Source: Bacteroidia bacterium (GTDB taxonomy: Bacteria > Bacteroidota > Bacteroidia > Flavobacteriales > Flavobacteriaceae). Taken from it: DNA of 64,000 nt. Shown one piece after another: positions 41,258-63,471 of the stretch; the first letter of the stretch is position 1, and each line of letters begins with the position of its first letter. Location of the stretch: positions 124,001-188,000 of the forward strand of contig JAUIAY010000001.1 in assembly GCA_030425285.1 (NCBI GenBank). Reading direction: 5' to 3'. A program made the position numbers and the translations under genes. The notes under the pieces were generated by a model. The model was not told where the DNA came from and made no database searches. It saw only the letters and a program-made list of their open reading frames with translations.

Positions 41258-44128
41258 ATGAAACAAAAATTACTTTCTATTCCTTTTTTATTCCTCTCAA
41301 TACTTCTTTGTGCTCAAACACAAGATGATGTTGCTTTTAGTGTATCACCATCAGCATTCGAGGAAAATGAGGAAATCACAATAACCGTTTCTAATTTAGA
41401 TGCCTCCGTTTGGGGAAGCACCGATGGTGAAGATATTTATCTTTGGTCCTGGTATTTTGATACAAATGGAAACCAGGTAGGCGATTCTCCAACTAACGGT
41501 CAATGGGCAGATTCAAACGAAGTTCAAAAGTTCACCAATAACAATGATGGCACCTATACCTTTACAATGACGCCTACGTCTTTTTTTAATGATACTGGAA
41601 TTGGTCAAATAGGGATGCTTGTGAAGAGTGACGATGGCGCTCAACAATCTCAAGATGAATTGTTTTATGTTGGTATTGTTACACTTGTACTAAACAATCC
41701 AACTTCCGATACGGTTATTATAGAATCTGGAGGCAGTATTTCAATTAGTGCCTATATGATTTCTGGCGGAAGTACTGAAGTTGGTAATTTTGAAGTTTTT
41801 CTAAATGACAATTCCGTAGATACTGGAACAGGTTTTCCGAATTTTGGAACAACTATTAACAATGTCACAGAGTCAGGCACGATGCGTGTTGTTGGAACAC
41901 CTTTTAGCTCTTCGGAATCTGGAGAAGCAACGTTTGAAGTATCCATTGCATCTGTAACACTTGAAAATCTTCCAAATGGCCTTGTTGACGGCATTAATTA
42001 TAATGATTCAGATCCTACCAAAGCAACTTTGGTAGTAGATGCTCCCAATAAAGATTTTGTTTATCTGGCTGGAAGTTTCAATAATTGGGCTCCTTATAGT
42101 TCTCATTTAATGAAAAAAGACCCTTCCAGTTCAAAATTCTGGCTGGAATTGACAGGTTTAAATCCAGGTGAAGTATATACGTATCAATACTGGATTTACG
42201 ATAACTCGCCAGTTGCCAACTCGCCTAATGAAGTCAAGACAGCCGATCCTTTCTCTACATTGGTTCTATCTCCTTTTGATGATCCTTGGATTCCGGCTTC
42301 GTCATATCCAAACCTTCCTACATATCCTGCTGGTCAAGAACGTGAAGTAACTGTACTACAAACCGGTCAATTAGATTATGATTGGCAAGTAACCGATTTT
42401 CAAAAACCAAAAAAAGAAGACCTCATCATTTATGAAGTATTGATTCGTGATTTTGATGAAGACAGAAATTATCAAGACTTAATTGATAAAATCGATTACT
42501 TCAAAGACCTTAATGTCAATGCTATTCAATTAATGCCAGTAATGGAATATGAAGGGAATGAAAGTTGGGGCTATAACACGGCTTTTCACATGGCGTTGGA
42601 TAAGTTTTATGGAACAGAAGAAAAACTTAAAGAATTTGTAGATACCTGTCATCAAAACGGTATTGCTGTTATTCTAGATATTGCTTTAAACCATGCCTTT
42701 GGTAGAAACCCAATGGTTCGCATGTGGATGGACGATCCTGATGGTGATGGTTGGGGTGGACCAAGCATTGAAAATCCTTACTTTAACCAAACACCAAGAC
42801 ATAGTTACAATGTTGGTAACGATTTTAATCACCAAGAGCCTATGACACAATATTATGTGCAACGTGTTGTACAGCATTGGATTGAAGAATTCCATATTGA
42901 TGGTTTCCGATGGGATTTGACCAAAGGATTTACTCAAAACTGTACAGCAAGTGATGAAGGTTGTACCAATACATACCAAGCTGATCGCGTACAGGTTTTA
43001 AAAGAATATGCCGATTTTAGTTGGAGTTTAGACGACACCCATTATGTAATTTTTGAACATTTGGGTTCTGATACTGAAGAACAAGAATGGGCTAACTATA
43101 GAATTGGAGAAGGAAAAGGTGTTATGATGTGGGGCATTATGACCCATGATTATAACGAACTAACTATGGGTTATCCAGCCAACATTAATAGAATGGGACA
43201 CAGCTCTAGAGGTTTTACGGCTCCAAGATTAGTGGGTTATGCTGAAAGCCATGACGAAGAACGATTAATGTATAAAAACCTTCAATTTGGAAATAGTTCT
43301 GGAGGTTATGATATTAGAGACCTAAACACCGCTCTTGAAAGAATGTCAGCTCTAGGCGCTGTTACCTTAACTATTCCTGGTCCAAAAATGATTTGGCATT
43401 TTGGCGAATTGGGAATGGAGAATTCTATTTTCACCTGCAATGATGGAAGTGTCAATGAGCCAGGAGGTACCGATGGAGATTGTAAACTAGATATCAAACC
43501 GCAACCACAATGGGTTAACAACTGGACTGAAGATCCTACTAGAAGTCAAATTTATAGCGATTGGGCTAGATTAAATGAGTTAAAAATTAACAGTCCTGTT
43601 TTTGAGGGTAATTACACTATTGATTCTGGAGACTTAACACCACGAATTTATATTTGGGATGATGCTATTCCTACTAATGAATTAAAAAATGTTGTGATTT
43701 TAGCAAACTTTGATGTTACTGCTCAAAATATCACACCAGATTTTCCATACGCAGGTACTTGGTACGATTTAATGGATGATTCCGGTAGCACTTCTATCAA
43801 TGTAACCAACACTTCGGCTCCTATCAATATACCAGCTGGAGGCTTCAGAGTTTATGGAAATGCATTAGCTACATTGAGTGTTGACACTGTAGAAACCGTT
43901 AATAACATCCAATTATATCCAAATCCAGCAAAGAATAATTTTTATATCAACTCAAATGTTAAATCTGTTGAGATATTTGATACTACTGGTAAGTTAATTA
44001 AATCCTTTTATGGCAATTTTAATAAGAATCACGCATTTGACTCAACAGGCTTAAGTAAAGGATTATATTTTATAAAAGCAACGAACAACTCAGGAAGTCA
44101 TTTTACCACTAAACTTATGAAAATCTGA
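41258..44128 (+). CDS. extracellular GH13 alpha-amylase with T9SS type A tail
   Basis: 956 residues. Signal peptide ends LLCAQ (about 20). Residues 22-235 are beta domains; 250-335 is a CBM48-like domain (FVYLAGSFNNWAPYS); the GH13 barrel starts about 388 (LIIYEVLIRDFDEDR). Motifs: LDIALNHAFG; nucleophile Asp553 in HIDGFRWDLTKG; acid/base Glu600 in YVIFEHLG; AESHDEERL with Asp666. A C-terminal beta domain is followed by a type A sorting domain (NIQLYPNPAKNNFYINSN to LSKGLYFIKA). It is therefore exported through the T9SS and attached or released, acting as the first enzyme on external starch. Functions in place of SusG. Start codon sits right after a terminator-like hairpin. Confidence 0.93.
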   Translation: MKQKLLSIPFLFLSILLCAQTQDDVAFSVSPSAFEENEEITITVSNLDASVWGSTDGEDIYLWSWYFDTNGNQVGDSPTNGQWADSNEVQKFTNNNDGTYTFTMTPTSFFNDTGIGQIGMLVKSDDGAQQSQDELFYVGIVTLVLNNPTSDTVIIESGGSISISAYMISGGSTEVGNFEVFLNDNSVDTGTGFPNFGTTINNVTESGTMRVVGTPFSSSESGEATFEVSIASVTLENLPNGLVDGINYNDSDPTKATLVVDAPNKDFVYLAGSFNNWAPYSSHLMKKDPSSSKFWLELTGLNPGEVYTYQYWIYDNSPVANSPNEVKTADPFSTLVLSPFDDPWIPASSYPNLPTYPAGQEREVTVLQTGQLDYDWQVTDFQKPKKEDLIIYEVLIRDFDEDRNYQDLIDKIDYFKDLNVNAIQLMPVMEYEGNESWGYNTAFHMALDKFYGTEEKLKEFVDTCHQNGIAVILDIALNHAFGRNPMVRMWMDDPDGDGWGGPSIENPYFNQTPRHSYNVGNDFNHQEPMTQYYVQRVVQHWIEEFHIDGFRWDLTKGFTQNCTASDEGCTNTYQADRVQVLKEYADFSWSLDDTHYVIFEHLGSDTEEQEWANYRIGEGKGVMMWGIMTHDYNELTMGYPANINRMGHSSRGFTAPRLVGYAESHDEERLMYKNLQFGNSSGGYDIRDLNTALERMSALGAVTLTIPGPKMIWHFGELGMENSIFTCNDGSVNEPGGTDGDCKLDIKPQPQWVNNWTEDPTRSQIYSDWARLNELKINSPVFEGNYTIDSGDLTPRIYIWDDAIPTNELKNVVILANFDVTAQNITPDFPYAGTWYDLMDDSGSTSINVTNTSAPINIPAGGFRVYGNALATLSVDTVETVNNIQLYPNPAKNNFYINSNVKSVEIFDTTGKLIKSFYGNFNKNHAFDSTGLSKGLYFIKATNNSGSHFTTKLMKI

Positions 44129-44161
44129 GTATATAATTGATTAATAGCGATTGTCAATTAC

Positions 44162-44195
44162 AAAAAAAGCTTCTTGAAAACAAGAAGCTTTTTTT
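44162..44195. terminator. bidirectional intrinsic terminator
   Basis: AAGCTTCTTG and CAAGAAGCTT form a 10-bp stem with a 4-nt A loop, flanked by A and T runs. It follows the amylase gene by about 35 nt and also lies just beyond the 3' end of the minus-strand tRNA-Leu. Confidence 0.92.
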
Positions 44196-44198
44196 CTG

Positions 44199-44280
44199 TG
44201 CGGGCGGAGAGACTCGAACTCTCACACCTCGCGGCACTAGATCCTAAGTCTAGCGTGTCTACCAATTCCACCACGCCCGC
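44199..44280 (-). tRNA. tRNA-Leu (anticodon UAG)
   Basis: The minus strand folds as a class II tRNA: acceptor stem GCGGGCG pairs with CGCCCGC, the anticodon stem CTAGA/TCTAG encloses loop CTTAGGA with anticodon TAG, a long variable arm (GTGCCGCGAGGTG region) follows, and the T arm contains GTTCGAGTC. Length is 82 nt and CCA is not encoded. It reads CUN leucine codons. Confidence 0.96.
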
Positions 44281-44305
44281 AATATGTTTCCCAATAAATG
44301 GGATG

Positions 44306-44334
44306 CAAATATAAACAATAGTTTGAATATTCAA
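44306..44334 (-). promoter_or_regulatory. promoter of tRNA-Leu
   Basis: On the minus strand, TTG (44332-44334), an 18-nt spacer and TATATTTG (44306-44313) match the Bacteroidota -33/-7 consensus exactly. The -7 box lies 25 nt before the tRNA 5' end. The TTG lies inside direct-repeat copy A. Confidence 0.7.
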
Positions 44335-44369
44335 ATGTATCTGTTGGGAAAAAATTTATAACCTTTTGT
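44326..44369 (+). repeat. 44-bp direct repeat, copy A (left flank of the hydroxybutyrate cluster)
   Basis: Begins AATATTCAAATGTATCT and is 38/44 identical to 54318-54361 in the same orientation, with 27 of the first 28 positions matching. It lies between the tRNA-Leu and the end of the seven-gene minus-strand cluster. The plus-strand reading has no gene downstream here. Confidence 0.85.
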
Positions 44370-44431
44370 TAGTGATAAATTTGAAACAAACTTTAAAAAG
44401 TCAGCATATTTATACAAAAGAAAATTATATT

Positions 44432-44463
44432 AAAAAACCACCACTTTTATATAAAAGTGGTGG
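44432..44463 (-). terminator. intrinsic terminator of the hydroxybutyrate cluster
   Basis: A perfect 26-bp palindrome (CCACCACTTTTAT and its complement, 44438-44463) followed on the minus strand by six T. It is 36 nt beyond the stop of the 3-hydroxybutyrate dehydrogenase gene. Confidence 0.88.
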
Positions 44464-44498
44464 AACTTAAAAATTAAAAAACTAATTCTAAAAAACAC

Positions 44499-45269
44499 TT
44501 ACTGTGCTGTCCATCCACCATCAAGGACAAACTCTGATCCAGTAATGGTTGACGAAGTTTCTTTTGCCAACAATAAAGCCATATCTGCTAAAGCCTCAAC
44601 TGGCACAAAAGACTTTACTGCTTGCTTCTTTAACATGACTTTGTTTATGACCTCCTCTTCAGACATATTGTGTGACTTTGCCTGATCTGGTATTTGTTTT
44701 TCAACAAGCGGCGTACGAACATAACCTGGACAAATAGCATTACAGGTAATATTGTAAGGTGCTCCTTCTAAACCAAGTACTTTGGTCATACCTATTACCC
44801 CATGTTTTGCTGTCACGTAAGCCGTTTTATATTCTGAAGCACGTAATCCGTGAACCGATGAAATGTTTATTATCCGACCAAAATTTTGCTCTTTCATATA
44901 CTTCCAAGCGGCTTTTGAGGCATAAAATGCAGCATTCATATTAATGGCAATGATGGCTTCATATTTGTCGTTTGGAAATTCATCAATTGGCGAAACATAT
45001 TGAATTCCTGCATTGTTTACTAAAACATCCAATCGACCAAAAATGTCATAGGTTTTTTTTACTAATTCTTCTACTTGATCAGGTTGCATTAAATTCACAT
45101 TGGAAAAAGCTGTTTTAACATTGTTCTTATTTCCTACTTGCGTTGCTATTTCTAAGCCATTAGACTCAAGACCATGAAACATGATATGGTATCCATTTTG
45201 AGCAAATTGTTTTGCTATACCCAAACCAATACCACTAGTACTACCCGTTATTAATGCAACTCTATTCAT
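44499..45269 (-). CDS. 3-hydroxybutyrate dehydrogenase
   Basis: 256-residue short-chain dehydrogenase that oxidises D-3-hydroxybutyrate to acetoacetate with NAD+. Cofactor motif ITGSTSGIG at 7-15, NNAG at 85-88, catalytic Ser137/138, Tyr151 and Lys155 (YVTAKHG). The C-terminal half, NAICPGYVRTPLVEKQIPDQ and SEFVLDGGWTAQ, is characteristic of 3-hydroxybutyrate dehydrogenases rather than generic SDRs; the Gln-rich PLVEKQI segment contacts the substrate in known enzymes. Overlaps the upstream alpha/beta hydrolase by 8 nt; last gene of the cluster, ending at a strong terminator. Confidence 0.92.
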   Translation of the reverse strand: MNRVALITGSTSGIGLGIAKQFAQNGYHIMFHGLESNGLEIATQVGNKNNVKTAFSNVNLMQPDQVEELVKKTYDIFGRLDVLVNNAGIQYVSPIDEFPNDKYEAIIAINMNAAFYASKAAWKYMKEQNFGRIINISSVHGLRASEYKTAYVTAKHGVIGMTKVLGLEGAPYNITCNAICPGYVRTPLVEKQIPDQAKSHNMSEEEVINKVMLKKQAVKSFVPVEALADMALLLAKETSSTITGSEFVLDGGWTAQ

Positions 45270-46053
45270 CTTTTAAAAAGTCTAAAACAATTTTATTGAA
45301 AGCACTTGGTTGATCTAACACCAAACCATGTCTTGAGTTTTCAATCACTTTTAGTTGTGCATTTTGCATCCTTCCAGTATACTCCTCTTTAAAACTTACG
45401 GGCGAATAATCCATGTCCGATGCCACAACTAATGTTTCAGCTTCAATATCTCGAAGTTTATCTCCAAGCCCCCAATTCATCAAAGTAACGAAAGACTGAT
45501 AGTACGCATCAAAATCATTTGCAGCACAACGAATTTCAAAGTCATTTTTTAGAGATTCTTGTTGAGGCTCCGGAAACATATTATATGCTATTTCCTTTGC
45601 TAAAGCCTTCAACCCTTTGGTTTTCAAAAAAGTTGTTCTAGTATCCAATAGTTCTTCTCCAAGTTTTCCCATGGCATTAAAATCAGGTCCGCTGTTTACG
45701 ATAACCATTTTATCAACTAAATCTGGATAGGAATATGCTAACTGAAAAGCTACTGCACCTCCCATTGAAAATCCTATTGGTATCACTTTGTTTAGACCTA
45801 GTTCGCTTAAGAGCTTTATGACATCTTTAACCATAAGGTCGACACCATAGTTTAGATTTTCCTGAAAGGAATTTCCATGTCCTCGCAAATCTGGGACTAC
45901 AACTCGATACTCTTTTGAAAAGGCAGGGATTTGAAATTCCCAATCTTGTTTAGTTGATCCCAAGCCGTGTAATAACAATAGTACTCTTGTATTGTTGTTA
46001 CCGGTATCAGAATAGTCCAAAGAAATAGGTTCTCTGTTTACTTCTTTTGGCAT
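45262..46053 (-). CDS. alpha/beta hydrolase (cytoplasmic)
   Basis: 263 residues without signal peptide. Alpha/beta-hydrolase fold: oxyanion strand VLLLLHGLGSTKQDW, DLRGHGNS, nucleophile Ser96 in GFSMGGA, acid region ASDMDYSP and catalytic His in NSRHGLVLDQP. Related to enol-lactonase/esterase-type enzymes. Given its 8-nt overlap with 3-hydroxybutyrate dehydrogenase, a role in hydrolysing an imported 3-hydroxybutyrate ester or dimer is plausible but inferred. 9 nt after the TonB-dependent receptor gene. Confidence 0.88.
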   Translation of the reverse strand: MPKEVNREPISLDYSDTGNNNTRVLLLLHGLGSTKQDWEFQIPAFSKEYRVVVPDLRGHGNSFQENLNYGVDLMVKDVIKLLSELGLNKVIPIGFSMGGAVAFQLAYSYPDLVDKMVIVNSGPDFNAMGKLGEELLDTRTTFLKTKGLKALAKEIAYNMFPEPQQESLKNDFEIRCAANDFDAYYQSFVTLMNWGLGDKLRDIEAETLVVASDMDYSPVSFKEEYTGRMQNAQLKVIENSRHGLVLDQPSAFNKIVLDFLKDE

Positions 46054-46062
46054 TTTCTAAAA

Positions 46063-48534
46063 TTATTGGTTCTTTTTAAAGAAATTGAATTTATACTTTA
46101 ACTCAAAAGAAACTAACCTACTAATTACTGGTGATGCTACAAATTCTCTTATTTCAGTATCAAACAAATTGGTTACATTCACGCCCAAGGATACATTTTC
46201 ATTCAAGTTGTAGCCAAAATTCGCATCAATGGTAAATCCGCCTAAAGGACCATAATTCCACGTTCGTCCTACTCTTGCATTTTCAACTATTTCGTCAACA
46301 CCATCACCGTCTAAATCTTGAGTTTTTGCCGCAACATTTATCCCCGAAAAGAAATCATAATCTTGGATCCATCTACCAAAAACTGCACCATAAAACTTAT
46401 CAGAACTATAGTGTAATCCGACATTGAACTTATTTTCTGGAGTGTTTATTGGAAGTTCGCTTTCCAAAACTACACCGTCCAAATTTCCATCATTATCTAA
46501 ATCATCAGTATCTAAACTGCGTCCAAAATAGGAATAGTTAAAAGAAGCTCTAAAGGCATCTGAAAAGTAATAGTTTAATCCTATATCAATACCATAAGTA
46601 TCAACACTACCAAAATTACTATAGGTTAATAACGCAGGTGATTGGCTAGCTCCAGGAGACACCTCATCAATTGGCGTGTCTCCAATATGGGTTACGAAGT
46701 TTCCATTGGCAGCATCAGCTATATTTCTTAAAGGACTTATGAAATTTTCTGACATATTATAATATGCACTAGCATCTATAAAAAACTTATCTGATATTTT
46801 TCCTTTGAAACCCAATTCAAAAGAATTAATGGTTTCAACTTCCAAAGGATCTATTTTAGTTCCATCTGTTAAGGTAAATCCTTCTCCATTTCCTAAAACC
46901 AATCCTCCAAATAAATTTCCTTTTAAGTTTAATATTGAAGGTACTGCCATACCTCTACCGTAGGTCAATCTAAACGTACCTGCGTCTATAGATTTAGTGA
47001 TAGCAGCTTTTGGTAAAAGGTTTGTTCCGTATAAATCATGATTATCAGCTCTTAAACCAGCCAAGAAATTCCAACCAGAGTCTAGTTTATACTCAAACTG
47101 CCCATAAAAGCCTATTTGTCCTATTTCTATTGGTCCATCAGCATCCAATAAATAGGTTCCTTCAGAATTTGCCATATCTAATTGGTACTGACCTCCCAAC
47201 GTGAGATAAAAATTTCCCCAATTATTGTTGTATTGGGCTTCTCCATTAAATCGTTCCGAGGCATCTTTAAACAGTGCACCTCTTGGTATAGCGATACCTA
47301 ATGAAGGCACCCATTGTTCATAAAGTGCACGACTCCATGCTTCTTCTTCAGAAAAACCATTTTCAATAAAAGAGACATAGTTTTGAGTACGTTGATTAAT
47401 GGCATATGTTTCATCTGTTCTACTCCAAGTATAGTATGCGTTTGCAAAGATATTTTTAGACACAAATTTTAATTGGGCTATATCTAAAGTCCAATCTTTA
47501 ATTTGGTTTCTACCAGCATTAGTTACAGCCAAATTTGTATTATTACTATGCCCATAATACCCGATTAATTCAGATTGTTTTCCAGTTTTATAATGTACCG
47601 CTCCACCATATTTAAGTGCATCAAAATCACGATCTAGATTATGCTCTTCATACGCTGTTGTACCCACATATACAGAATCAACATACATAAATTCTTTTCC
47701 TGCTGTTCTTTCAAGATGTATTTTATATGATAATCTGTCATTAATAATTTGAGCATGTCTTAACCTACCTGTAATCACATTTTGATTTCCAACTCCAAAT
47801 GCTAAAGTAGTCCCTTCAGATGTTCTTGGATTTTTGGTAATTGTACTTACCAATCCATTATGAGCATTAGGTCCATAGAGCGTTCCATTTGGCCCCAATA
47901 AAATCTCAACGCGTTCAATATCGTCTTTAGTCACGGTCGAGAACGAACCATACGGTAAACCTGTTGCAATTAGCATGGAAACACGATCATCGGTCATTTG
48001 AAGATTTTTTGAATTGAAAGCAGAGTTAAAACCACGAATATTAATTCCCGTTCCCAATACACCACTTCTAATAAAATCCACACCTTTTTGCCTAGCAGCC
48101 ATCTCACCTATATTAAAACTAGGAAACTCTGCAATTTCCCTGGCTGTTATCACTTCTACTGTTGCAGGAACATCAGTTACCTTTTGAAGTTTTTTCCCTG
48201 CAGTTATAACAACTTCATCGAGCACGTTTTCGCCATCTTCTAGTGTGCTATTTAATTCTGTGTTTTGTCCACTCACTACAGTCACACTATTCTCAATACT
48301 TTTATAACCTACGTAACTTATACTTACAGAATGCGTTCCTGCTGGAACATTAGCTATAATATATTTACCGTCAAAGTCTGTAATAGCTCCTAATTTTAAT
48401 TCAGTAATTTGTACTGTAGCACCAGTTAATGGCGAACCATTTATATCTAAAACCGTTCCGCTTACAGTTCCAGAATCCTGCGCATAAGCTAAACCAGTAA
48501 TCATTAAAATGGCCAGAAGTAATATTTTTCTCAT
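46063..48534 (-). CDS. TonB-dependent outer-membrane receptor
   Basis: 823 residues. Signal peptide ending GLAYAQ, then a carboxypeptidase-like regulatory domain (VSGTVLDINGSPLTGATVQI, DFDGKYII), the TonB-box region LDEVVITAG, a plug (VEVITAREIAEFPSFNIGE, INIRGFNS, VEILLGPNGTLYGPNAHNGLV) and a beta-barrel ending FELKYKFNFF. It has no SusD partner, so it belongs to the non-SusC class that takes small ligands. The barrel includes Asp-rich loops (DTDDLDNDGNLDGV; DLDGDGVDEIV) that resemble calcium-binding loops. 153 bp separate it from the upstream TPR-like gene, so it may have its own promoter. Confidence 0.93.
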   Translation of the reverse strand: MRKILLLAILMITGLAYAQDSGTVSGTVLDINGSPLTGATVQITELKLGAITDFDGKYIIANVPAGTHSVSISYVGYKSIENSVTVVSGQNTELNSTLEDGENVLDEVVITAGKKLQKVTDVPATVEVITAREIAEFPSFNIGEMAARQKGVDFIRSGVLGTGINIRGFNSAFNSKNLQMTDDRVSMLIATGLPYGSFSTVTKDDIERVEILLGPNGTLYGPNAHNGLVSTITKNPRTSEGTTLAFGVGNQNVITGRLRHAQIINDRLSYKIHLERTAGKEFMYVDSVYVGTTAYEEHNLDRDFDALKYGGAVHYKTGKQSELIGYYGHSNNTNLAVTNAGRNQIKDWTLDIAQLKFVSKNIFANAYYTWSRTDETYAINQRTQNYVSFIENGFSEEEAWSRALYEQWVPSLGIAIPRGALFKDASERFNGEAQYNNNWGNFYLTLGGQYQLDMANSEGTYLLDADGPIEIGQIGFYGQFEYKLDSGWNFLAGLRADNHDLYGTNLLPKAAITKSIDAGTFRLTYGRGMAVPSILNLKGNLFGGLVLGNGEGFTLTDGTKIDPLEVETINSFELGFKGKISDKFFIDASAYYNMSENFISPLRNIADAANGNFVTHIGDTPIDEVSPGASQSPALLTYSNFGSVDTYGIDIGLNYYFSDAFRASFNYSYFGRSLDTDDLDNDGNLDGVVLESELPINTPENKFNVGLHYSSDKFYGAVFGRWIQDYDFFSGINVAAKTQDLDGDGVDEIVENARVGRTWNYGPLGGFTIDANFGYNLNENVSLGVNVTNLFDTEIREFVASPVISRLVSFELKYKFNFFKKNQ

Positions 48535-48687
48535 GATCTTATTAGATTAATTAAGTTATTGGCGCAATCTATTAGGAATAAATATGGAATTTAAAATAAA
48601 ATGTAAAGTTGTTGGATGCGACTTTTAAATATTTCGCATTAAAATAATCACAAAAATCTCTAATATCACTTATGTTATAATGAATTT

Positions 48688-50106
48688 TTATAGGTATGAC
48701 TTTAGCTTCAAAAAAGCTTCAGGTAAATTATTTGACAGCGTATCTATGACCTGAACCAAGACCGTTTTTTGGCTTTTAGTTGGCTTAAGACCTTCCATTG
48801 GTGCTTTGATATCTTCTAATAATTTTGAAGAATTTATCTGCCCTTCCATATATCTTGACAATGAAATACTCCAAGAAATATTGGGCACATAACTATGTCC
48901 AGATTTATGTTCTTTCTCCTTGGATGTGATGTCGAATTTTGAGGCGATCTTGAGTAATTCGGTGTATTTTTCTTGGGCAATCAATACAATAAAATAGGAG
49001 GTAAAGAAATGGTGCCAACGGTGCTTAAGCACTTCCTTTTTGTTCTGCTTTAAAAAGTTCGAGGCTACTTCTTCGGCCAGTTTGTTTTGTCCAACTTGGT
49101 TTAACGCTCGTATTCTGTAAGAACAAAACCCAATTTTTTGATGATAGTTATGTGATTCTTTATACAGCTGATGGTATGTATCCAAAACATTGTTGGCCTC
49201 TTTTGGTTTTTTATTTTTTAATAGTATGGCTACTAAATTGTTCACGTACATTAAGGTGTCGTTATTATACTGCCTTATTGAAAGGTAAGCATAATATTCA
49301 GCTAAGTCCAGTTCGTTTTCCTTGGAATGCATGAGTACACGGCTTGCATAATAATTAGATAACAATCGTCTTGAGTACATTTCGCCTTTACTAAAAAATA
49401 GGTCAATCTCGTCAAACAATAGTTTTAGTTTCGTGCTCTCTCCATAATTGGTGTACATAAAAGCCAAAGTAATAAACGCCATATATCGATTTTTACCATC
49501 TACATCTTCATCTTTAAAAACCTCTAACAGCCAAGGCTCCCAATATATTGTTTCGCTATCTTTCTGTGTGTATTGGCTTGTTATTTCAGTTGTTGCATTA
49601 TAAAGCTTTTGTTGAATGTTTTTTGCTTTTTCATAATCATCTGAATAGTTCTCCAAAAAATTTGCGACTATTTCATGGTCTTTGTACCGCAACCTGATGA
49701 GCAAATACGGTTTGTATTCTTGGGCCAATTCATAAACGATTTGGAAATTGTAACCTGCCTTTTTATAGTTTGCCAAAAAGTTGAGGAACGCTTTTTCTTC
49801 TGAAGAAACTATAGCATCTAAAAGGATTTTCTTATTGAGATCCAAAATCCATTTTGCCGTTTCGTCAACATCTACACTTTCCAGTTTTCTTGACACCCAA
49901 TTTTTCACATAAGAGTATTTTCGCTTGTCAATACTAGCATCAAAATGACCCTTTGCATTATTGGTTAAAGCACCATTGACCAACTGATTTAAGATTTCAG
50001 TTTTTTCGTTATCGGTAAATTGGTGTTGCGAAACTAGGTATTTGGCCTCGTTGGGAAGAATTGTTTTACTAAACTCTGTGAATTTTTTGAGTTTAACCTT
50101 CTGCAT
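48688..50106 (-). CDS. TPR-like helical protein, unknown function
   Basis: 472 residues, cytoplasmic, nearly all helical, with repeated aromatic/Leu patterns and Tyr-rich helix pairs (AEYYAYLSIRQY, ANNVLDTYHQLYKE, NKLAEEVASNFLKQ) resembling tetratricopeptide repeats over about 220-400. I see no helix-turn-helix or catalytic motif. The ATG shares its first base with the stop of the upstream alpha/beta hydrolase (50106), so translation is coupled. Position in the middle of the hydroxybutyrate-type cluster suggests a regulatory or scaffold role specific to it, but this is a guess. Confidence 0.75.
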   Translation of the reverse strand: MQKVKLKKFTEFSKTILPNEAKYLVSQHQFTDNEKTEILNQLVNGALTNNAKGHFDASIDKRKYSYVKNWVSRKLESVDVDETAKWILDLNKKILLDAIVSSEEKAFLNFLANYKKAGYNFQIVYELAQEYKPYLLIRLRYKDHEIVANFLENYSDDYEKAKNIQQKLYNATTEITSQYTQKDSETIYWEPWLLEVFKDEDVDGKNRYMAFITLAFMYTNYGESTKLKLLFDEIDLFFSKGEMYSRRLLSNYYASRVLMHSKENELDLAEYYAYLSIRQYNNDTLMYVNNLVAILLKNKKPKEANNVLDTYHQLYKESHNYHQKIGFCSYRIRALNQVGQNKLAEEVASNFLKQNKKEVLKHRWHHFFTSYFIVLIAQEKYTELLKIASKFDITSKEKEHKSGHSYVPNISWSISLSRYMEGQINSSKLLEDIKAPMEGLKPTKSQKTVLVQVIDTLSNNLPEAFLKLKSYL

Positions 50107-51047
50107 TATTCCTTTTCTATAAACTCCTTGATTAATGTATTCACTTTTTCAGGTTGTTCGAACTGTAAAAAATGGCCACTTTCATCAACAAAAACAAGTG
50201 TGCTATTTTTTATACCATCTTTGGCATTATTACCAACTTCATTGATGTCCAAATCAGGGTTGAAGTAACGATTTGGAATCAACATATCATTTTTACCATA
50301 AAGCACCAATGTGTTTTGAGAGATTTTATCTAAATCATTAACAACAGTGTCGTCCAACATCCCTGCAATGCTTTTTGATATCGCATGGCAATGCGCTTCA
50401 AAATCTGACGCTTCCTTTATGGCTATTCTATCGGTTATCATTTCGTTGACTTCTATTGGCTGATTATAAAAATTAAGTGCATAGTTGGTTTTAATCTGCT
50501 CGTTTGTCGTATTCGCAACAAAACCTGGCGTGAACATCGTCTTCATAATGTTGCCTTGGCCATCCGTAAATGTTTCTATTCCTGCTGGTGCTACCAAAAT
50601 TAGCTTTTCAATCTTATTAGGTGAATTGACCACAGTTTTTATAGCAGCCTGCCCACCCATTGAATGCCCAATAAGGGTTACATTTTTTAGTTCTAGCTCA
50701 TCTATAAACCCAGAAATGATTTCAGAAAAATAGGTTGGTGTGTAGCTGGCATCTTCAGGTTTTCCAGATTTTCCATAACCTGGCAAATCCAATGCGACAC
50801 AAGTAAAATCATTTTTTAAAACTTCCACATTTTTGGACCATGCATCCAAATTACTACTTAATCCGTGCACGAACAAAAGGGTTTCCTCTCCTTTACCTTC
50901 TTTGACGTAAGCAATTTCCACACCATCTACTGTAGTATAATGCGTTGGGAACTTATATTTAGACACTATGCTTTTCATTGTATTATCATTGGTTTGGGAG
51001 CACGCAACTATTGGCAATAAAACCAATATTAACAATATGTGTTTCAT
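50106..51047 (-). CDS. alpha/beta hydrolase lipoprotein
   Basis: 313 residues from the ATG at 51045-51047, chosen since it starts a signal peptide with lipobox (MKHILLILVLLPIVAC); an upstream ATG at 51128 would overlap the ligase gene by 71 nt and hide the signal. Alpha/beta-hydrolase motifs: LLFVHGLSSNLDAW, DLPGYGKSG, nucleophile Ser in LIGHSMGGQAA, the acid in LYGKNDMLIP and His in DESGHFLQFEQP. So it is a membrane-anchored periplasmic esterase, the counterpart of the cytoplasmic hydrolase in the cluster. It lies 10 nt after the ligase gene and touches the TPR-like gene. Confidence 0.88.
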   Translation of the reverse strand: MKHILLILVLLPIVACSQTNDNTMKSIVSKYKFPTHYTTVDGVEIAYVKEGKGEETLLFVHGLSSNLDAWSKNVEVLKNDFTCVALDLPGYGKSGKPEDASYTPTYFSEIISGFIDELELKNVTLIGHSMGGQAAIKTVVNSPNKIEKLILVAPAGIETFTDGQGNIMKTMFTPGFVANTTNEQIKTNYALNFYNQPIEVNEMITDRIAIKEASDFEAHCHAISKSIAGMLDDTVVNDLDKISQNTLVLYGKNDMLIPNRYFNPDLDINEVGNNAKDGIKNSTLVFVDESGHFLQFEQPEKVNTLIKEFIEKE

Positions 51048-51057
51048 TTCTGTAAAT

Positions 51058-52572
51058 TTATGATTGTATTTTGGATTTGTATGCTTCAAAATGAGCATTA
51101 AGTTTTTTTCTTGAAATTTTGCCAACACTGGTTAATGGTATATCATCCAAAATAATAATGTGTTTTGGTCGCTTGAAGGACACTAAATTTTTATCAACAA
51201 AATTGTTTACCTCATTTATTGATTTTCCTTTTTTCAATACTACAAATGCTACGCCACATTGCCCCCAAACTGCATCATCAACACTTAAAACCGCAGCTTT
51301 AGTAACACTTTTACACAATAATAATTTTGAAGTGATTTCCTGCGGATATACATTTTCACCACCAGAGATATACATGTCGTCTCGTCTCCCTTTAAGAAAT
51401 AAGTAGCCTTCTTTGTCCTTTAGTACCAAGTCACCAGTGTGCAACCAACCATTTTTTATTTTGTTGTTGGTTTCAGTTGAATTGTTCCAATAACCTGGTG
51501 TAACGATTTCGCCTTTTATACAGAACTCACCTACTTCATTCACTCGGGCTTTTCGCCCAGAGGATGTCACAATTTTTGTTTTTAAATAAAAGTTGGGTTT
51601 GCCAATGGATTCTGGTTTGGACATCGCAATGTTATGGTGCAAGGATGTAATGCTTGGGCCAGCTTCGGTTAATCCATAACCTGGCCTAATAGCAGTACCT
51701 TTTTTTTCTTTCCAAAGTTTTAGTAAATCGGGTGAAACCGTTTCACCTCCTGAAATAATGAAACGCAAATACTCTAAATTTACTTTCTTGAAAACTTCGG
51801 TTTTTTGCATCATCGCCAACATCGTGGGCAATGCCATAAAGAGTGTTGTTCTGTTTAATTCCAAAAGACATAAAATGCGTTCGGCATCAAATTTTTGAAC
51901 CATACCAATATGCGCACCTTTGTGTAACAAAGGGGTTACAAAAATGTTCCACCCTGAAGTGTGATATGGAGGTAATGTATTAATTGTTGAATCACGAAAC
52001 GTTATACCCAACTGCATTGAAGTATTCAGACTGTTCCAAAACATCATTTTGTTGGTATAAATTACACCTTTGGGTCTTCCTGTTGTGCCAGATGTATAAA
52101 AAATGAAGATTGGGTTTCGTTCTTTAATTTGAAATGTTCTGGGCTTAACACAAACATCATCTTGATAATAATACTTTATAAGATCTAAATGGATGGTTCT
52201 TGGCAGCGCAACTGTAAGTTCTTCCAACTTTTCCTTCTGAGTTTCGCTGTAAAGCAACAAGGCAGGATTACAATCCAAAAACAACGCTTCAAGGTCTTTT
52301 AATGATAGTCTGTAATTTAAAGGAACAATAATAATTCCACTGCGCTGGCAAGCTGAAAGTAATACGAGATAATGCAGGCTGTGTTCTGCTAGTACGGCAA
52401 TTCTATCACCTTCTTGAAGGCCTAAACTTTCAAATTTTTCAACCAATCTATTGGCATAAATATGAAGCTGGTTGTATGTGTATTTTTCTTCTGTATCAAA
52501 AGATGTTACGGCTACTTTTTCAGGTGTATAATCTGCCCATTTAGCTATCCAATCCAACGTGTCTGTGGTCAT
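51058..52572 (-). CDS. AMP-binding acyl-CoA ligase
   Basis: 504-residue adenylate-forming enzyme: P-loop-like FIFYTSGTTGRPKGV, A5 motif RPGYGLTEAGPS, A7 WLHTGDL, A8 GRRDDMYISGGENVYPQEI and the C-terminal catalytic Lys in LTSVGKISRKKL. It activates a carboxylic acid to acyl-CoA through acyl-AMP. Length is that of small/medium-chain or MenE-like ligases, shorter than typical acetoacetyl-CoA synthetases of about 650 residues. In context it could activate acetoacetate, 3-hydroxybutyrate or another released acid. Start overlaps the symporter gene by 32 nt, indicating coupling. Confidence 0.9.
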   Translation of the reverse strand: MTTDTLDWIAKWADYTPEKVAVTSFDTEEKYTYNQLHIYANRLVEKFESLGLQEGDRIAVLAEHSLHYLVLLSACQRSGIIIVPLNYRLSLKDLEALFLDCNPALLLYSETQKEKLEELTVALPRTIHLDLIKYYYQDDVCVKPRTFQIKERNPIFIFYTSGTTGRPKGVIYTNKMMFWNSLNTSMQLGITFRDSTINTLPPYHTSGWNIFVTPLLHKGAHIGMVQKFDAERILCLLELNRTTLFMALPTMLAMMQKTEVFKKVNLEYLRFIISGGETVSPDLLKLWKEKKGTAIRPGYGLTEAGPSITSLHHNIAMSKPESIGKPNFYLKTKIVTSSGRKARVNEVGEFCIKGEIVTPGYWNNSTETNNKIKNGWLHTGDLVLKDKEGYLFLKGRRDDMYISGGENVYPQEITSKLLLCKSVTKAAVLSVDDAVWGQCGVAFVVLKKGKSINEVNNFVDKNLVSFKRPKHIIILDDIPLTSVGKISRKKLNAHFEAYKSKIQS

Positions 52573-54052
52573 CTTTATTCTTATTAAAATAGTACAACAA
52601 ATACCCTACTACTACCGAACTCACAATGGCTATGGCAGCCGGAATTCCGGGATTATTTACAGGTTCTTGCATGTATGGTGTGAGCCTTCCGTAGTAAATT
52701 CCAAAATGAACTACCAGAGCTACAAAACTTGCCGAAAATACCGCTTTAAGCGGTACATTTTTTAAGAACATCCCAAAAAGCACTGGCACGAAAGCAGCGG
52801 CAAAATAGGCATAAACCCCATTTTGGGCAAAAATAGCAACACTCACATCAGGGTTTACTATCTGGTTCCAACTCAATATAAAACTTACTATTGCCAAAAT
52901 AACAATTACACCTTTATTTACCAACACTGAATGTTGAGAAACACGTTCCTTAAAAATCGGCTGTAATATATCTTGCGTAATTGTAATTGATAATGATTGA
53001 ATCAAACTTTCCAAGGTTGATAATCCAGCAGATATTAGTCCAACAACAATGAACATTCCAAGTCCAACCGAGAATTTCACCACGACATAGGTTGGAATAA
53101 TTTCATCCATTTTTAGAGCTGTCCCATCTACAGTTAAATCAGGAAAAGTTAACCTTGCATACAAGCCAACAATTACCACTAAAAAGAAAACAATCATAAA
53201 CATAATACCACTAAACAGGTATTTGTTTATTTTTTTGGAGTCTTTTAAAAGCAATGATTTTGTTATGATGTGCGGTTGACAAACAATCGCAACACCAATG
53301 ACAACCTGTGCTAAAATAATTTCAAAATAATCCCTAAACAGAAAACTGTTTTTGTTTGTGGGTTTGGTCAAGTTTCCATCAATGGCTCCTAACTTTTCAA
53401 AAAAACCAGTTATTCCATTTTCAAAAAACTCATAACCAGAACCAATCAATATCAACGCCACAAAAAACATAATTATGGCTTGAATAGTATTGGTATAGAC
53501 CATAGAATTGGCTCCTCCAAACATCATATAGCCAAATACGAATACAGTTATTCCCAAGAGAACGTAAAACGGTTCTGCATTTAATGATTTTGAAATAACC
53601 TGCGTTAATCCTACGTTGATGAGTACAATAAATGTTATGAGTAGTAATGCTAAAATCGCCATAAAAAAAGCATAGGATTTACTTTTATACCGTTGTCCCA
53701 TCCATTGGGCCATAGTTGTCGCCTTTACACTATGACCATATTTAGCAAAACCTTTGGTAAGCACAATTAAGGACACAAAGGCAGCTATTGGCAAAACAAT
53801 ACCAAAGGATAATACGCCTGTAACTCCATAAAGCGCAATAAAACCTGGGTTAATTATAAATGTAGCAGCACTGGTCATAGAAGCCGCTAGAGAAAGTCCA
53901 ACGACCCAAGACGGAAACTTTATATTGCCAACAGCAAAATCTGAAATGTTCTTCGCTTTTAACGCGCCTCTAATTACAAAAAACAAGATTACGGCAGCAT
54001 AAACCACCAATAAAATTGCCATAAAAGTCACCCATTTTTCTGATGCCTGCAT
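52541..54052 (-). CDS. sodium:solute symporter family transporter
   Basis: 503 residues with about thirteen hydrophobic helices and the SSS-family pattern: first helix VYAAVILFFVI, then DFAVGNIKFPSWVVGLSLAASMTSAATFI, which holds the LeuT-fold sodium-site segment, and FMILV-type helices such as GLGMFIVVGLISAGLSTLESLIQSLS (the second sodium site). Probably imports a monocarboxylate such as 3-hydroxybutyrate or acetoacetate over the inner membrane. First gene of the minus-strand cluster. The upstream gap contains a 25-bp dyad and a TAnnTTTG box. Confidence 0.92.
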   Translation of the reverse strand: MQASEKWVTFMAILLVVYAAVILFFVIRGALKAKNISDFAVGNIKFPSWVVGLSLAASMTSAATFIINPGFIALYGVTGVLSFGIVLPIAAFVSLIVLTKGFAKYGHSVKATTMAQWMGQRYKSKSYAFFMAILALLLITFIVLINVGLTQVISKSLNAEPFYVLLGITVFVFGYMMFGGANSMVYTNTIQAIIMFFVALILIGSGYEFFENGITGFFEKLGAIDGNLTKPTNKNSFLFRDYFEIILAQVVIGVAIVCQPHIITKSLLLKDSKKINKYLFSGIMFMIVFFLVVIVGLYARLTFPDLTVDGTALKMDEIIPTYVVVKFSVGLGMFIVVGLISAGLSTLESLIQSLSITITQDILQPIFKERVSQHSVLVNKGVIVILAIVSFILSWNQIVNPDVSVAIFAQNGVYAYFAAAFVPVLFGMFLKNVPLKAVFSASFVALVVHFGIYYGRLTPYMQEPVNNPGIPAAIAIVSSVVVGYLLYYFNKNKDDHRHVGLDS

Positions 54053-54158
54053 TGTTTAAGTCTTATATAAAACAAATAAACTTTTTAAAATTTCAATATA
54101 AGCAAAGAATGCAAAAATAACACATGTGACTTTTAGCTTTAAAAAAGTATTATACAAT

Positions 54159-54183
54159 TATTTAATTGATATTCAATTAAATA
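54159..54183. promoter_or_regulatory. 25-bp dyad, operator candidate of the hydroxybutyrate cluster
   Basis: TATTTAATTGA and TCAATTAAATA are perfect 11-bp inverted repeats separated by TAT. It lies 107 bp upstream of the symporter start and is flanked on both sides by a GTGACTTTTA direct repeat. No regulator gene with a recognisable DNA-binding domain is present in the cluster. Confidence 0.5.
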
Positions 54184-54317
54184 GCAACCAGTGACTTTTA
54201 TATGAGTTTTCATAATAAAAATCCAATATGAAAAATTGAACACTGAAACCAAACTTGTTTGATATACTAGCTTCAAAGCATCATTGATAACTAGGTAAAG
54301 AAACCTAAAATGAATAA

Positions 54318-54361
54318 AATATTCAAATGTATCTATTGGGAAAAAGTTCTTACTCTTTTGT
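54318..54361 (+). repeat. 44-bp direct repeat, copy B (right flank of the hydroxybutyrate cluster)
   Basis: 38/44 identical to copy A (44326-44369), same orientation; mismatches at positions 18, 29, 32, 33, 36 and 37. It contains the TTG of the dipeptidase promoter and reaches the first base of the -7 box. Confidence 0.85.
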
Positions 54362-54368
54362 ACTTTTG
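54336..54368 (+). promoter_or_regulatory. promoter of the M20 dipeptidase gene
   Basis: TTG (54336-54338), 22-nt spacer and TACTTTTG (54361-54368) match the Bacteroidota -33/-7 consensus. The -7 box lies 21 nt before the ATG at 54390, which also argues against the in-frame ATG at 54327 as start. Confidence 0.7.
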
Positions 54369-54389: not shown

Positions 54390-55778
54390 ATGAATAATAT
54401 AAAAGATTACGTTTCTGCAAACAAAGACCGTTTTTTAAACGAACTTATTGAACTACTTAAAATACCTTCTGTAAGTGCCGATTCAGCTTTTAAACAAGAC
54501 GTTTTAAAAACTGCTGATGCTGTTAAAGAAAGTCTTGAAAAAGCAGGCTGTGATACAGTAGAAATTTGCGAAACAGATGGGTATCCTATTGTTTATGGCG
54601 AAAAAATAATAGATGAAAAACTTCCAACCGTTTTGGTTTATGGCCATTATGACGTGCAACCAGCGGATCCAATCGAACTTTGGGATTCACCACCATACGA
54701 ACCCATAATTAAAAAAACAAAATTACATCCCGAAGGAGCTATTTTTGCTCGTGGCGCATGTGATGATAAAGGGCAAATGTATATGCACGTTAAAGCTTTG
54801 GAGTTTATGACATCAACCAATCAATTGCCGTGCAATGTTAAATTTATGATAGAAGGCGAAGAGGAAGTTGGCAGTGTTAACCTATCAACTTTTGTAAAGA
54901 ACAATCATGAAAAACTAAAGAATGATGTGATTCTGATTTCAGACACAGGCATGATTGCTAAAGATGTGCCAAGTATTACAACCGGTTTACGCGGTTTAAG
55001 CTATGTAGAGGTTGAAGTTACTGGTCCAAATCGTGATCTGCATTCTGGGTTATATGGTGGCGCTGTTGCTAATCCTATAAATGTTTTGACCAAGATGATT
55101 GCTTCGCTACATGATGAAAACAATCATATTACCATTCCTGGTTTTTATGATAAGGTAGAGGAATTATCAACCGAAGAACGTGCTGAAATGGCCAAAGCGC
55201 CGTTTTCTCTAGAAGATTATCAAAAGGCACTCGATATTGATGCGGTATATGGCGAGAAAGGCTATACAACCAACGAACGTAATTCAATAAGACCTACATT
55301 GGATGTTAACGGAATTTGGGGAGGCTATATTAGAGAAGGTGCTAAAACAGTTATTGCCAGTAAAGCTTATGCCAAAATATCTATGCGATTAGTACCTCAT
55401 CAAGATTGGGAAGAAATCACTCAACTATTTAAAACCCATTTTGAAAGTATTGCTCCAAAGGGTGTTACAGTTAAAGTAAAACCACATCATGGTGGACAAG
55501 GTTATGTAACACCAATTGATAGTATTGGTTATCAAGCCGCTAGTAAAGCTTATGAGGAGTCCTTTGGGAAAAAGCCTATTCCGCAACGTAGTGGTGGTAG
55601 CATTCCAATTGTTGCACTTTTCGAGCAAGAGTTAAAAAGTAAAACCATTTTAATGGGGTTTGGATTAGATAGTGATGCCATTCATTCGCCTAACGAACAC
55701 TATGGCATTTGGAATTACTTTAAAGGCATAGAAACTATTCCATTGTTTTACAAGTATTTTACTGAATTAAGCAATTAA
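54390..55778 (+). CDS. M20 family metallo-dipeptidase
   Basis: 462 residues from the ATG at 54390 (MNNIKDYVSANKDRF); an earlier ATG lies upstream of the promoter box. M20 motifs for two zinc ions: VYGHYDVQPADP (His, Asp), GACDDKGQ (bridging Asp), MIEGEEEVGS (catalytic Glu and ligand Glu), ISDTGM (Asp) and DSDAIHSPNEHYG (His). A lid domain is inserted at about residues 195-350, starting at the GPNRDLHSGLYGG segment. Cytoplasmic; hydrolyses dipeptides or related short peptides. Faces away from the hydroxybutyrate cluster; its promoter contains repeat copy B. Confidence 0.94.
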   Translation: MNNIKDYVSANKDRFLNELIELLKIPSVSADSAFKQDVLKTADAVKESLEKAGCDTVEICETDGYPIVYGEKIIDEKLPTVLVYGHYDVQPADPIELWDSPPYEPIIKKTKLHPEGAIFARGACDDKGQMYMHVKALEFMTSTNQLPCNVKFMIEGEEEVGSVNLSTFVKNNHEKLKNDVILISDTGMIAKDVPSITTGLRGLSYVEVEVTGPNRDLHSGLYGGAVANPINVLTKMIASLHDENNHITIPGFYDKVEELSTEERAEMAKAPFSLEDYQKALDIDAVYGEKGYTTNERNSIRPTLDVNGIWGGYIREGAKTVIASKAYAKISMRLVPHQDWEEITQLFKTHFESIAPKGVTVKVKPHHGGQGYVTPIDSIGYQAASKAYEESFGKKPIPQRSGGSIPIVALFEQELKSKTILMGFGLDSDAIHSPNEHYGIWNYFKGIETIPLFYKYFTELSN

Positions 55779-60065: not shown

Positions 60066-60087
60066 TTGATAAAAACCGTAAAATGTT

Positions 60088-60114
60088 AAAGCCTCGAAAT
60101 ATCGAGGCTTTTTT
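60088..60114 (+). terminator. intrinsic terminator of the BlaI-M56 operon
   Basis: AAAGCCTCG and CGAGGCTTT form a 9-bp stem with a 6-nt loop (AAATAT region) followed by T residues, 23 nt after the M56 gene stop. Confidence 0.9.
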
Positions 60115-60196
60115 GTAACATTTCAACACTTTTTACGTTCTAATAGTCAATCAACCTGGCCTTTGTATAGTTTAAAGGTCAAAAATATCATCAATC

Positions 60197-61297: not shown

Positions 61298-61341
61298 TAA
61301 TTAGTTAGTATTTTTAGGAAAACAATTCAACTCGTTTTCTT

Positions 61342-61764
61342 ATGAAATCACTATTAGTCATTTTATCAATATGCTTTTCAACTTTTGCTTTTTCACAATC
61401 TGCTGATGAAACAGCCATTAGAAAAGTCATGCAGGAGCAACAAGATGCCTGGAACAACTATGACATTGAAGGCTTTATGGAAGGTTATTGGAAGTCAGAT
61501 TCCTTACAATTCTACAGTCGCGGTTACATAACCAAAGGTTGGAAACAAACTTTGGACAACTATAAGAAAAATTATACCTCTAGTGAGCAAACAGGGCAAT
61601 TAACCTTTAAGCTTAACTCCATAGCACCCATAGAAGATGGCTCGTATTATATTATGGGGCAATACTTCCTAAAACGCACTGTTGGCGATGCAAATGGTGA
61701 GTTCATCATTATCTTTAAAAAGATAGATGGCGAATGGAAAATTATAGCAGATATGTCTACTTAA
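61342..61764 (+). CDS. DUF4440/NTF2-like exported protein
   Basis: 140 residues. Signal peptide MKSLLVILSICFSTFAFSQ, then an NTF2-like alpha+beta domain: helix DETAIRKVMQEQQDAWNNYDIEGFMEGYW and strands ending GEFIIIFKKIDGEWKIIADMS, the DUF4440 pattern. Exported to the periplasm. Related proteins bind small ligands or are catalytic, but no active-site residues can be assigned. 45 nt after the DUF4407 gene; its stop directly abuts the convergent STAS gene stop. Confidence 0.85.
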   Translation: MKSLLVILSICFSTFAFSQSADETAIRKVMQEQQDAWNNYDIEGFMEGYWKSDSLQFYSRGYITKGWKQTLDNYKKNYTSSEQTGQLTFKLNSIAPIEDGSYYIMGQYFLKRTVGDANGEFIIIFKKIDGEWKIIADMST

Positions 61765-63470: not shown

Positions 63471-63471
63471 A

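What the first reader, a model, noticed from the sequence alone, without database searches (positions are those of the whole stretch)
44326..54361. Seven-gene cluster bracketed by a 44-bp direct repeat between tRNA-Leu and a dipeptidase gene
Copies at 44326-44369 and 54318-54361 match at 38/44 positions (27 of the first 28). Everything between them is one minus-strand gene set plus its terminator and control region. Copy A carries the -33 element of tRNA-Leu; copy B carries the -33 element of the dipeptidase. The simplest model is an ancestral intergenic region with divergent promoters for tRNA-Leu and dipeptidase, into which a ~10-kb catabolic cassette was inserted with duplication of the site, so that both housekeeping genes kept a promoter. 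No transposase or integrase is present, so the mechanism would be recombination or a mobilised cassette.
Basis: partly seen in the sequence, partly recalled or inferred. Interest (0 to 1): 0.75.

Follow-up and report, generated by a model that had tools for sequence, protein, structure and literature searches.

The report
Imported gene cluster with duplicated site
A ten-kilobase set of seven genes, probably for feeding on 3-hydroxybutyrate compounds, was inserted between two housekeeping genes of a flavobacterium, and the small control region at the insertion point was duplicated so that both neighbours kept a start signal.

Summary
In detail: 38/44 matches, 27 of the first 28, two copies in the genome. 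All four other species held of the genus lack the cluster and have tRNA-Leu(UAG) and the dipeptidase head to head, 102-116 bp apart, with one copy of the sequence. The divergent pair is conserved in the family: 70 of 72 fetched loci, 64 within 300 bp. A and B share states absent from three or all four congeners; at all six A/B differences A is the odd one. So one ancestral gap was duplicated and A then decayed on its dipeptidase side. The nearest clusters (80% amino-acid identity; Mangrovimonas spongiae and a sister species) lie beside the same tRNA-Leu but on its other side; 13 further carriers have none in the 20-kb cluster locus. Cluster and dipeptidase trees disagree. I conclude: recent horizontal gain into one gap, 44-68 bp of target duplicated, no integrase or transposase seen. 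The joining mechanism is inferred; recombination of incoming DNA is my best guess. A new member of a known kind.

The parts
44198..44280 (-). tRNA-Leu (anticodon TAG)
   Evidence: ARAGORN; same gene upstream of and divergent from the dipeptidase in 70 of 72 family loci
44306..44335 (-). Putative tRNA-Leu promoter: -7-like TATATTTG (44306-44313) and -33-like TTTG (44332-44335, inside copy A)
   Evidence: Read from the sequence; unchanged in G001-G004; Bacteroidetes promoter consensus recalled, not tested
44326..44369 (.). Copy A of the duplicated intergenic sequence; similarity continues to about 44393; its dipeptidase-promoter side is decayed
44394..44498 (-). 3' end of the imported segment, with the cluster's terminator-like hairpin (about 44434-44466)
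   Evidence: Sequence, (I11); similarity to the Mangrovimonas spongiae locus reaches 44432
44499..45269 (-). 3-hydroxybutyrate dehydrogenase (SDR)
   Evidence: TIGR01963 at 345.6 bits (cut-off 307.05); PDB 3-hydroxybutyrate dehydrogenases are the best sequence matches
45262..46053 (-). alpha/beta hydrolase 2, no signal peptide apparent by eye
   Evidence: PF00561; PHB depolymerase (two chains) is the only PDB molecule under E 1e-20
46063..48534 (-). TonB-dependent outer-membrane receptor with CarboxypepD_reg domain
   Evidence: PF00593, PF13715, PF07715
48688..50106 (-). 472-aa all-helical repeat protein, no Pfam or NCBIfam family
   Evidence: model mean pLDDT 86.7; no PDB match at E 0.001 or better, weak ones to TPR/PPR solenoids
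50106..51047 (-). alpha/beta hydrolase 1, lipoprotein-like N terminus if read from the ATG at 51047 (the longest ORF starts at 51128)
   Evidence: PF00561; N terminus read, position
51058..52572 (-). AMP-forming acyl-CoA ligase
   Evidence: PF00501, PF13193
52541..54052 (-). Sodium:solute symporter (SSF)
   Evidence: PF00474
54053..54317 (-). Cluster control region with AAAAGTCAC sites at 54126-54134 and 54191-54199; junction with recipient DNA lies between 54200 and 54318
   Evidence: aligned to the M. spongiae locus up to 54135
54318..54361 (.). Copy B of the duplicated intergenic sequence; keeps the states of the congeners
54361..54368 (+). Putative dipeptidase -7 box TACTTTTG
   Evidence: Sequence; same in G001-G004; promoter consensus recalled, not tested
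54390..55778 (+). M20 dipeptidase
   Evidence: NF006053 at 554.1 bits (cut-off 441)

Best explanation
In the recent ancestry of this species, after it split from the four congeners held, about 9.8 kb of foreign DNA was inserted into the roughly 115-bp gap between divergent tRNA-Leu(UAG) and dipeptidase genes. The DNA carried seven genes with their own control region and terminator. The donor was a flavobacterium related to Mangrovimonas spongiae, where the same cluster lies directly behind the same tRNA-Leu. At least 44 and up to 68 bp of the gap ended up on both sides. Copy B went on serving the dipeptidase and stayed conserved; copy A went on serving the tRNA, and its unused dipeptidase-promoter half decayed. 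Shown: empty site, single ancestral copy, duplication in this lineage, which copy changed, closest relatives and their position. Inferred: that incoming DNA was joined by RecA-type or illegitimate recombination, perhaps guided by the identical core of the tRNA gene, across two sister copies of the gap, which would leave the overlap duplicated. Also inferred: which copy drives which gene, and that the cluster takes up and oxidises 3-hydroxybutyrate esters or oligomers.
For: Cluster in 1 of 5 genomes of the genus. Empty sites with one copy in the other 4. At site 19 of the repeat A and B share a state absent from all four congeners, at sites 21 and 38 one absent from three; at all six A/B differences A is the odd one and B keeps the state of at least 3 of 4 congeners. 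The species is nested in the genus in the rpoB tree (with G003, 98/93) and in the dipeptidase tree (with G002, 92/77), so retention would need at least two losses. The cluster groups with that of G032 and G258 (SH-aLRT 100, quick method without bootstrap; 79.7-79.9% over seven proteins against 55-69% for the 13 other carriers), while the midpoint-rooted dipeptidase tree puts those two on the other side of a 97/92 split (82% identity). In G032 and G258 the cluster starts 208 bp behind the same tRNA-Leu; in the 13 other carriers mapped no tRNA-Leu lies in the 20-kb cluster locus. The tRNA genes of the two groups share 48 identical bases in a row. No integrase or transposase family among the hits of 39 window ORFs. 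None of 64 short gaps of relatives holds a tandem copy: best 21 of 30, against 28 of 30 for A and B.
Against: The tRNA-anchored version predicts a second tRNA-Leu or its remnant beside copy B; none is found (local score 10, shuffle p 0.40). G+C does not mark the cluster as foreign (35.3% against 35.2%). The cluster's divergence from M. spongiae (75% of bases identical) is about that of the dipeptidase (77%), so the donor is not M. spongiae itself, and inheritance from a common ancestor is not excluded on distance alone. Cluster identity is not out of line with rpoB identity either (4.6 points above a line with residual s.d. 7.0). The rpoB backbone is unresolved. In one other carrier, G102, the cluster (59% ligase identity) lies on the same contig, about 19 kb from the dipeptidase, which could hint at an old address in this neighbourhood. 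Six other insertions in the same gap show no repeat, so duplication is not the rule there.
Confidence: 0.72

Rival explanations
1. Ancestral cluster with repeated losses: the cluster sat at this locus in a common ancestor of this genus and the M. spongiae group, and the four congeners lost it by recombination between the flanking repeats, which restores a clean gap.
For: Same tRNA-Leu locus in both groups; cluster and dipeptidase about equally diverged between the groups (75% and 77% of bases); G102 has a more distant cluster about 19 kb from its dipeptidase; deletion between direct repeats would leave exactly the sites seen.
Against: Needs at least two losses in the genus, plus losses in G400 and in other genera; A and B share site 19 with no congener, so the duplication looks younger than the splits; gene order differs (cluster behind the tRNA there, in front of it here).
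Confidence: 0.15
2. Remnant of a site-specific element: the 44-bp copies are attL and attR of an integrative element whose integrase was lost, leaving only the cargo.
For: Direct repeats of 44 bp flank it, next to a tRNA gene; the empty site holds one copy.
Against: Copy A starts 46 bp beyond the 5' end of the tRNA, not in the gene; no integrase or mobility family among the hits of 39 window ORFs; the segment aligned to the M. spongiae locus (44432-54135) fills nearly all of the interval; no other copy of the site in the genome; the helical protein has no match on plasmids and the ligase only matches under 60% identity.
Confidence: 0.1
3. The gap was first duplicated in tandem by slippage or unequal exchange, and the cluster was inserted between the copies later.
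For: Gives the same final anatomy; nothing in the data orders the two steps.
Against: Needs two events in one lineage; none of the 64 short gaps examined in relatives holds a tandem copy (best 21 of 30 bases).
Confidence: 0.08

Closest known systems
Homology-facilitated illegitimate recombination (PMC3240628; abstract and outline seen)
   Same: Foreign DNA without its own integrase joined to the chromosome, one end by homology and the other illegitimately.
   Different: Described in experiments; here neither end has been shown to be homologous, and the expected extra tRNA copy is missing.
Duplications formed by transformation across sister chromosomes (Streptococcus pneumoniae merodiploids; PMC3784515; abstract and outline seen)
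   Same: Exchange between sister copies leaves a duplicated stretch.
   Different: Those are about 100 to 900 kb and use chromosomal repeats; here 44-68 bp.
tRNA-linked genomic islands and ICEs (recalled)
   Same: Species-specific cargo beside a tRNA gene, flanked by direct repeats, empty site in relatives.
   Different: No integrase; repeat outside the tRNA gene on its 5' side; no mobility genes.
Seven-gene cluster of Mangrovimonas spongiae (L028 = G032) and G258 (L052)
   Same: Same seven genes and order, shared control motif in most of their promoters; 80% identity; beside the same tRNA-Leu.
   Different: There it lies behind the 3' end of the tRNA and the dipeptidase gap is intact.

Membership tests
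Horizontally acquired gene cluster | Absent from close relatives, which have an intact empty site | tested here: met
   1 of 5 genomes of the genus has it; four empty sites
Horizontally acquired gene cluster | Gene tree conflicts with host tree | tested here: met
   Cluster tree against dipeptidase tree; rpoB backbone unresolved, so the host tree rests on one gene here
Horizontally acquired gene cluster | Deviating base composition | tested here: not met
   35.3% against 35.2% G+C; a usual sign, not a required one, among low-GC relatives
Integrase-type genomic island or ICE | Integrase or other mobility gene inside | tested here: not met
   Seven cluster proteins; 39 window ORFs in all
Integrase-type genomic island or ICE | Attachment repeat within the tRNA gene, usually its 3' end | tested here: not met
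   Copy A starts 46 bp beyond the 5' end of the tRNA
Integrase-type genomic island or ICE | Direct repeats at both ends, one copy in the empty site | tested here: met
Transposon | Transposase | tested here: not met
   No transposase family among the hits
Transposon | Terminal inverted repeats | tested here: inconclusive
   None of the 25 inverted-repeat pairs shown of 82 joins the two ends; the other 57 were not seen
Insertion by homologous or illegitimate recombination | Homology or microhomology at the joints, donor DNA known | tested here: inconclusive
   48 identical bases in the tRNA genes but no tRNA remnant; true donor not in the data
3-hydroxybutyrate utilisation cluster | 3-hydroxybutyrate dehydrogenase | tested here: met
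   TIGR01963 and NF009093 above cut-off, NF009931 below it; PDB neighbours
3-hydroxybutyrate utilisation cluster | Recognised PHB depolymerase or oligomer hydrolase | tested here: inconclusive
   Both hydrolases are below the cut-offs of the PHA depolymerase models; one has a PHB depolymerase as its only PDB molecule under E 1e-20, the other has none
3-hydroxybutyrate utilisation cluster | Growth on the substrate depends on the genes | not testable with these tools
   Needs an experiment
SusC/SusD polysaccharide utilisation locus | SusD partner and glycoside hydrolases | tested here: not met
   No SusD or glycoside hydrolase among the seven proteins

The most novel reading that the evidence does not exclude
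The tRNA-Leu(UAG)-dipeptidase pair of Flavobacteriaceae is a recurrent landing place on both sides of the tRNA. Metabolic cassettes without integrases pass between genera there by recombination anchored in the tRNA core, and in this species the event left a 44-68 bp target duplication as its trace.
Probability: 0.15. Interest if true: 0.5.

Novelty: new member of a known kind. Interest (0 to 1): 0.36.

Why it matters
It is a clean natural example of how a whole catabolic pathway can enter a genome without a visible mobile element and without breaking its neighbours: the duplicated control region leaves each neighbour a promoter. It comes with empty sites, one copy that decays and one that does not, and a related cluster at the same tRNA in another genus. 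That makes the joining mechanism testable in a laboratory flavobacterium. It also names a seven-gene candidate pathway with a conserved control motif for 3-hydroxybutyrate compounds in flavobacteria.

Tried and rejected
Chance repeat: rejected. Dispersed promoter element or repeat family: rejected, two copies only. Copies A and B coming from two different recipient lineages: rejected, because they share site 19 with each other only, and sites 21 and 38 with G003 only. Donor intergenic region as source of one copy: rejected by reading, because the gap of G032 and G258 does not resemble A or B; no score was computed. Plasmid carriage: the helical protein has no match among 72,556 plasmids and the ligase only matches under 60% identity. 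tRNA remnant in the 182 bp next to copy B: not found. Regression of cluster identity on rpoB identity: uninformative. Which congener is nearest differs along the window and between rpoB and dipeptidase, so I claim only that the species is nested. Tandem copies in relatives: none in 64 gaps. Literature: no listed title describes the cluster in flavobacteria (15 of 23 listed, none found) or a matching island (1, 3 and 2 papers). Only listings with the starts of abstracts were seen, and for PMC3784515 and PMC3240628 the full abstract and outline; one search listed 15 of 49 papers. The fold of the 472-aa protein gave only generic helical-repeat matches, none at E 0.001 or better. Of the 17 named loci, 15 went into the cluster tree beside the genome rows, L028 entered as G032, and L030 was left out. 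G532 and G719 were not mapped. On rereading, the start of hydrolase 1 was moved to 51047; the queries began three codons later, which does not change their results.
Full report
OBSERVATION. With one gap the similarity runs to about 44393/54386 (81%, E 5.4e-11 over the whole genome); the next place in the genome has E 0.05 over 25 bases. The two intergenic regions score 39 where 1000 shuffles give at most 31. Between the copies lie seven minus-strand genes with control region and terminator.

EMPTY SITE. The assembly set holds four other species of the genus. None has the cluster: 1 of 5 genomes matches the acyl-CoA ligase at E 1e-100, and that one is this genome. In all four, tRNA-Leu(UAG) and the dipeptidase stand head to head, 102-116 bp apart, with one copy of the repeat sequence. 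I then asked how widespread the pair is. The dipeptidase was located in 65 other family members (119 genomes searched, E 1e-200) and in 13 further ones, 78 in all. I fetched 72 of these; left out were G007, G012 and G052 (contig edge or partial gene) and G397, G139 and G269. In 70 of 72 the tRNA lies upstream and divergent, in 64 of the 70 within 300 bp. The two misses are a contig end (G015) and one genome with no such tRNA in 12 kb (G027). Six loci have 687-4549 bp in the gap. These hold unrelated genes, and none shows a repeat above the maximum of its shuffles. None of the 64 short gaps holds a tandem copy (best 21 of 30 bases, against 28 of 30 for A and B). So the compact divergent pair is ancestral and the 10-kb gap here is derived.

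THE TWO COPIES ARE ONE ANCESTRAL GAP, DUPLICATED. Over 44 sites copy B differs from the congeners at 3-7 positions and copy A at 9-12. At all six sites where A and B differ, A has the odd state and B that of at least three of four congeners; five of the six lie in the last 16 bases, on the dipeptidase side. A and B share T at site 19 with no congener, and sites 21 and 38 with G003 only. So both come from a single gap of this lineage, and A has since changed on its dipeptidase side. The putative dipeptidase -7 box TACTTTTG (54361-54368) is intact beside B and in all congeners and gone in A. The putative tRNA promoter (TTTG 44332-44335 and TATATTTG 44306-44313 on the minus strand) is intact at A, while B keeps the -33 part without the -7 part. 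The promoter consensus is recalled, not tested.

WHERE THE CLUSTER COMES FROM. In 397 family genomes the ligase is found in 15 at E 1e-150, this one included; in 395 genomes of the order in 4, of which two were already known. Fifteen other carriers were mapped, the 14 others and G399, and all hold the same seven genes in the same order. The closest are G032 (Mangrovimonas spongiae, L028, by contig coordinates) and G258, of one genus: 79.7 and 79.9% over the seven proteins, against 55-69% for the other 13. The cluster tree joins this genome with these two (SH-aLRT 100, quick method). The dipeptidase tree, rooted at its midpoint, separates them (97/92). The rpoB tree does not resolve it, and cluster identity is not out of line with rpoB identity. 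In G032 and G258 the cluster starts 208 bp behind the 3' end of the same tRNA-Leu, with the tRNA-dipeptidase gap intact. A fourth member of that genus set, G400, has no cluster and a SelO gene behind its tRNA. In the 13 other carriers no tRNA-Leu lies in the 20-kb cluster locus, though in G102 the cluster is about 19 kb from the dipeptidase on the same contig. An independent landing within 10 kb of one given tRNA in a 3.1-Mb genome has a chance near 0.6% (my arithmetic), so the shared address is probably not an accident.

LIMITS OF THE IMPORT. Similarity to the M. spongiae locus runs from 44432 to 54135. The control region carries a motif, AAAGTCAYAC, found with at most one mismatch upstream of the symporter in 13 of 16 carriers (shuffled mean 0.36, maximum 3) and upstream of the TonB receptor in 14 of 16 (mean 0.27, maximum 3), this genome included in both; often twice, about 66 or 79 bp apart. 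Several carriers are close relatives, so the rows are not independent. In the window it occurs at 54126-54134 and, with more mismatches, at 54191-54199, so cluster DNA probably reaches at least 54199. Between that and copy B are 118 bp of unknown origin.

HOW IT WORKS, INFERRED. No integrase or transposase family appears among the Pfam hits of the 39 ORFs scanned, and the repeat is not in the tRNA gene. I therefore prefer recombination of incoming DNA. If its two ends joined two sister copies of the gap at points 44-68 bp apart, the overlap would be doubled. Anchoring in the tRNA core is attractive, since 48 bases in a row are identical between the two groups, and it would explain the shared address on opposite sides. 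It predicts an extra tRNA or its trace next to copy B, and none is seen. I keep that step as a guess.

FUNCTION. The dehydrogenase passes the curated cut-off for 3-hydroxybutyrate dehydrogenase and its nearest solved structures bear that name. With a sodium symporter, an acyl-CoA ligase, two alpha/beta hydrolases (one lipoprotein-like) and a TonB receptor, uptake and oxidation of 3-hydroxybutyrate esters or oligomers is the likeliest role. Neither hydrolase reaches a PHA-depolymerase cut-off. The 472-aa protein is a conserved all-helical repeat protein without a family.

VERDICT. The kind is known; the clean anatomy and the shared tRNA address are the interesting part.

Noticed in passing
window 54126-54134 and 54191-54199; upstream of the SSF and TonB-receptor genes in L028, L052, L072-L084: Conserved motif AAAGTCAYAC upstream of both halves of the cluster (13 of 16 and 14 of 16 carriers), often paired about 66 bp apart before the symporter and about 79 bp apart before the receptor: probably the operator of the cluster; no regulator gene is recognised inside.
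   Followed up: partly
window 48688-50106: 472-aa protein present in all 15 other carriers mapped (46-80% identity in alignment A1), no Pfam or NCBIfam family, confident all-helical repeat model with only generic TPR/PPR matches in PDB.
   Followed up: partly
L172, L151, L149, L138, L091, L142: Six other species have 0.7-4.5 kb of unrelated genes in the same tRNA-Leu-dipeptidase gap (one set looks by eye like an IS3-type pair), their main ORFs on the strand of the tRNA, and no flanking repeat.
   Followed up: partly
window 869-44128 and L053 5619-10032: In G400 relatives of the window's SelO, HI0933-like and DUF1697 genes (68, 77 and 51% identity) follow the tRNA-Leu within 4.5 kb; in the window these genes lie 34-43 kb away, with a starch-type Sus and glycoside-hydrolase locus (19087-44128) in between. 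The 3' side of this tRNA also seems to take up gene sets.
   Followed up: partly
window 27862-64000: The nearest congener changes along the window: G003 shares the extra bases in front of tRNA-Leu and is closest at 43912-44356, G001 is closest in DNA in the dipeptidase and to its right at 59855-64000, which hints at recombination within the genus.
   Followed up: partly
L067 and L081 (G102, one contig): A more distant copy of the cluster lies about 19 kb from the dipeptidase in G102; chance or an older address, not decided.
   Followed up: no
window 14855-16048: HD-domain protein with a Pycsar effector transmembrane domain (PF18967), possibly a defence or signalling protein.
   Followed up: no
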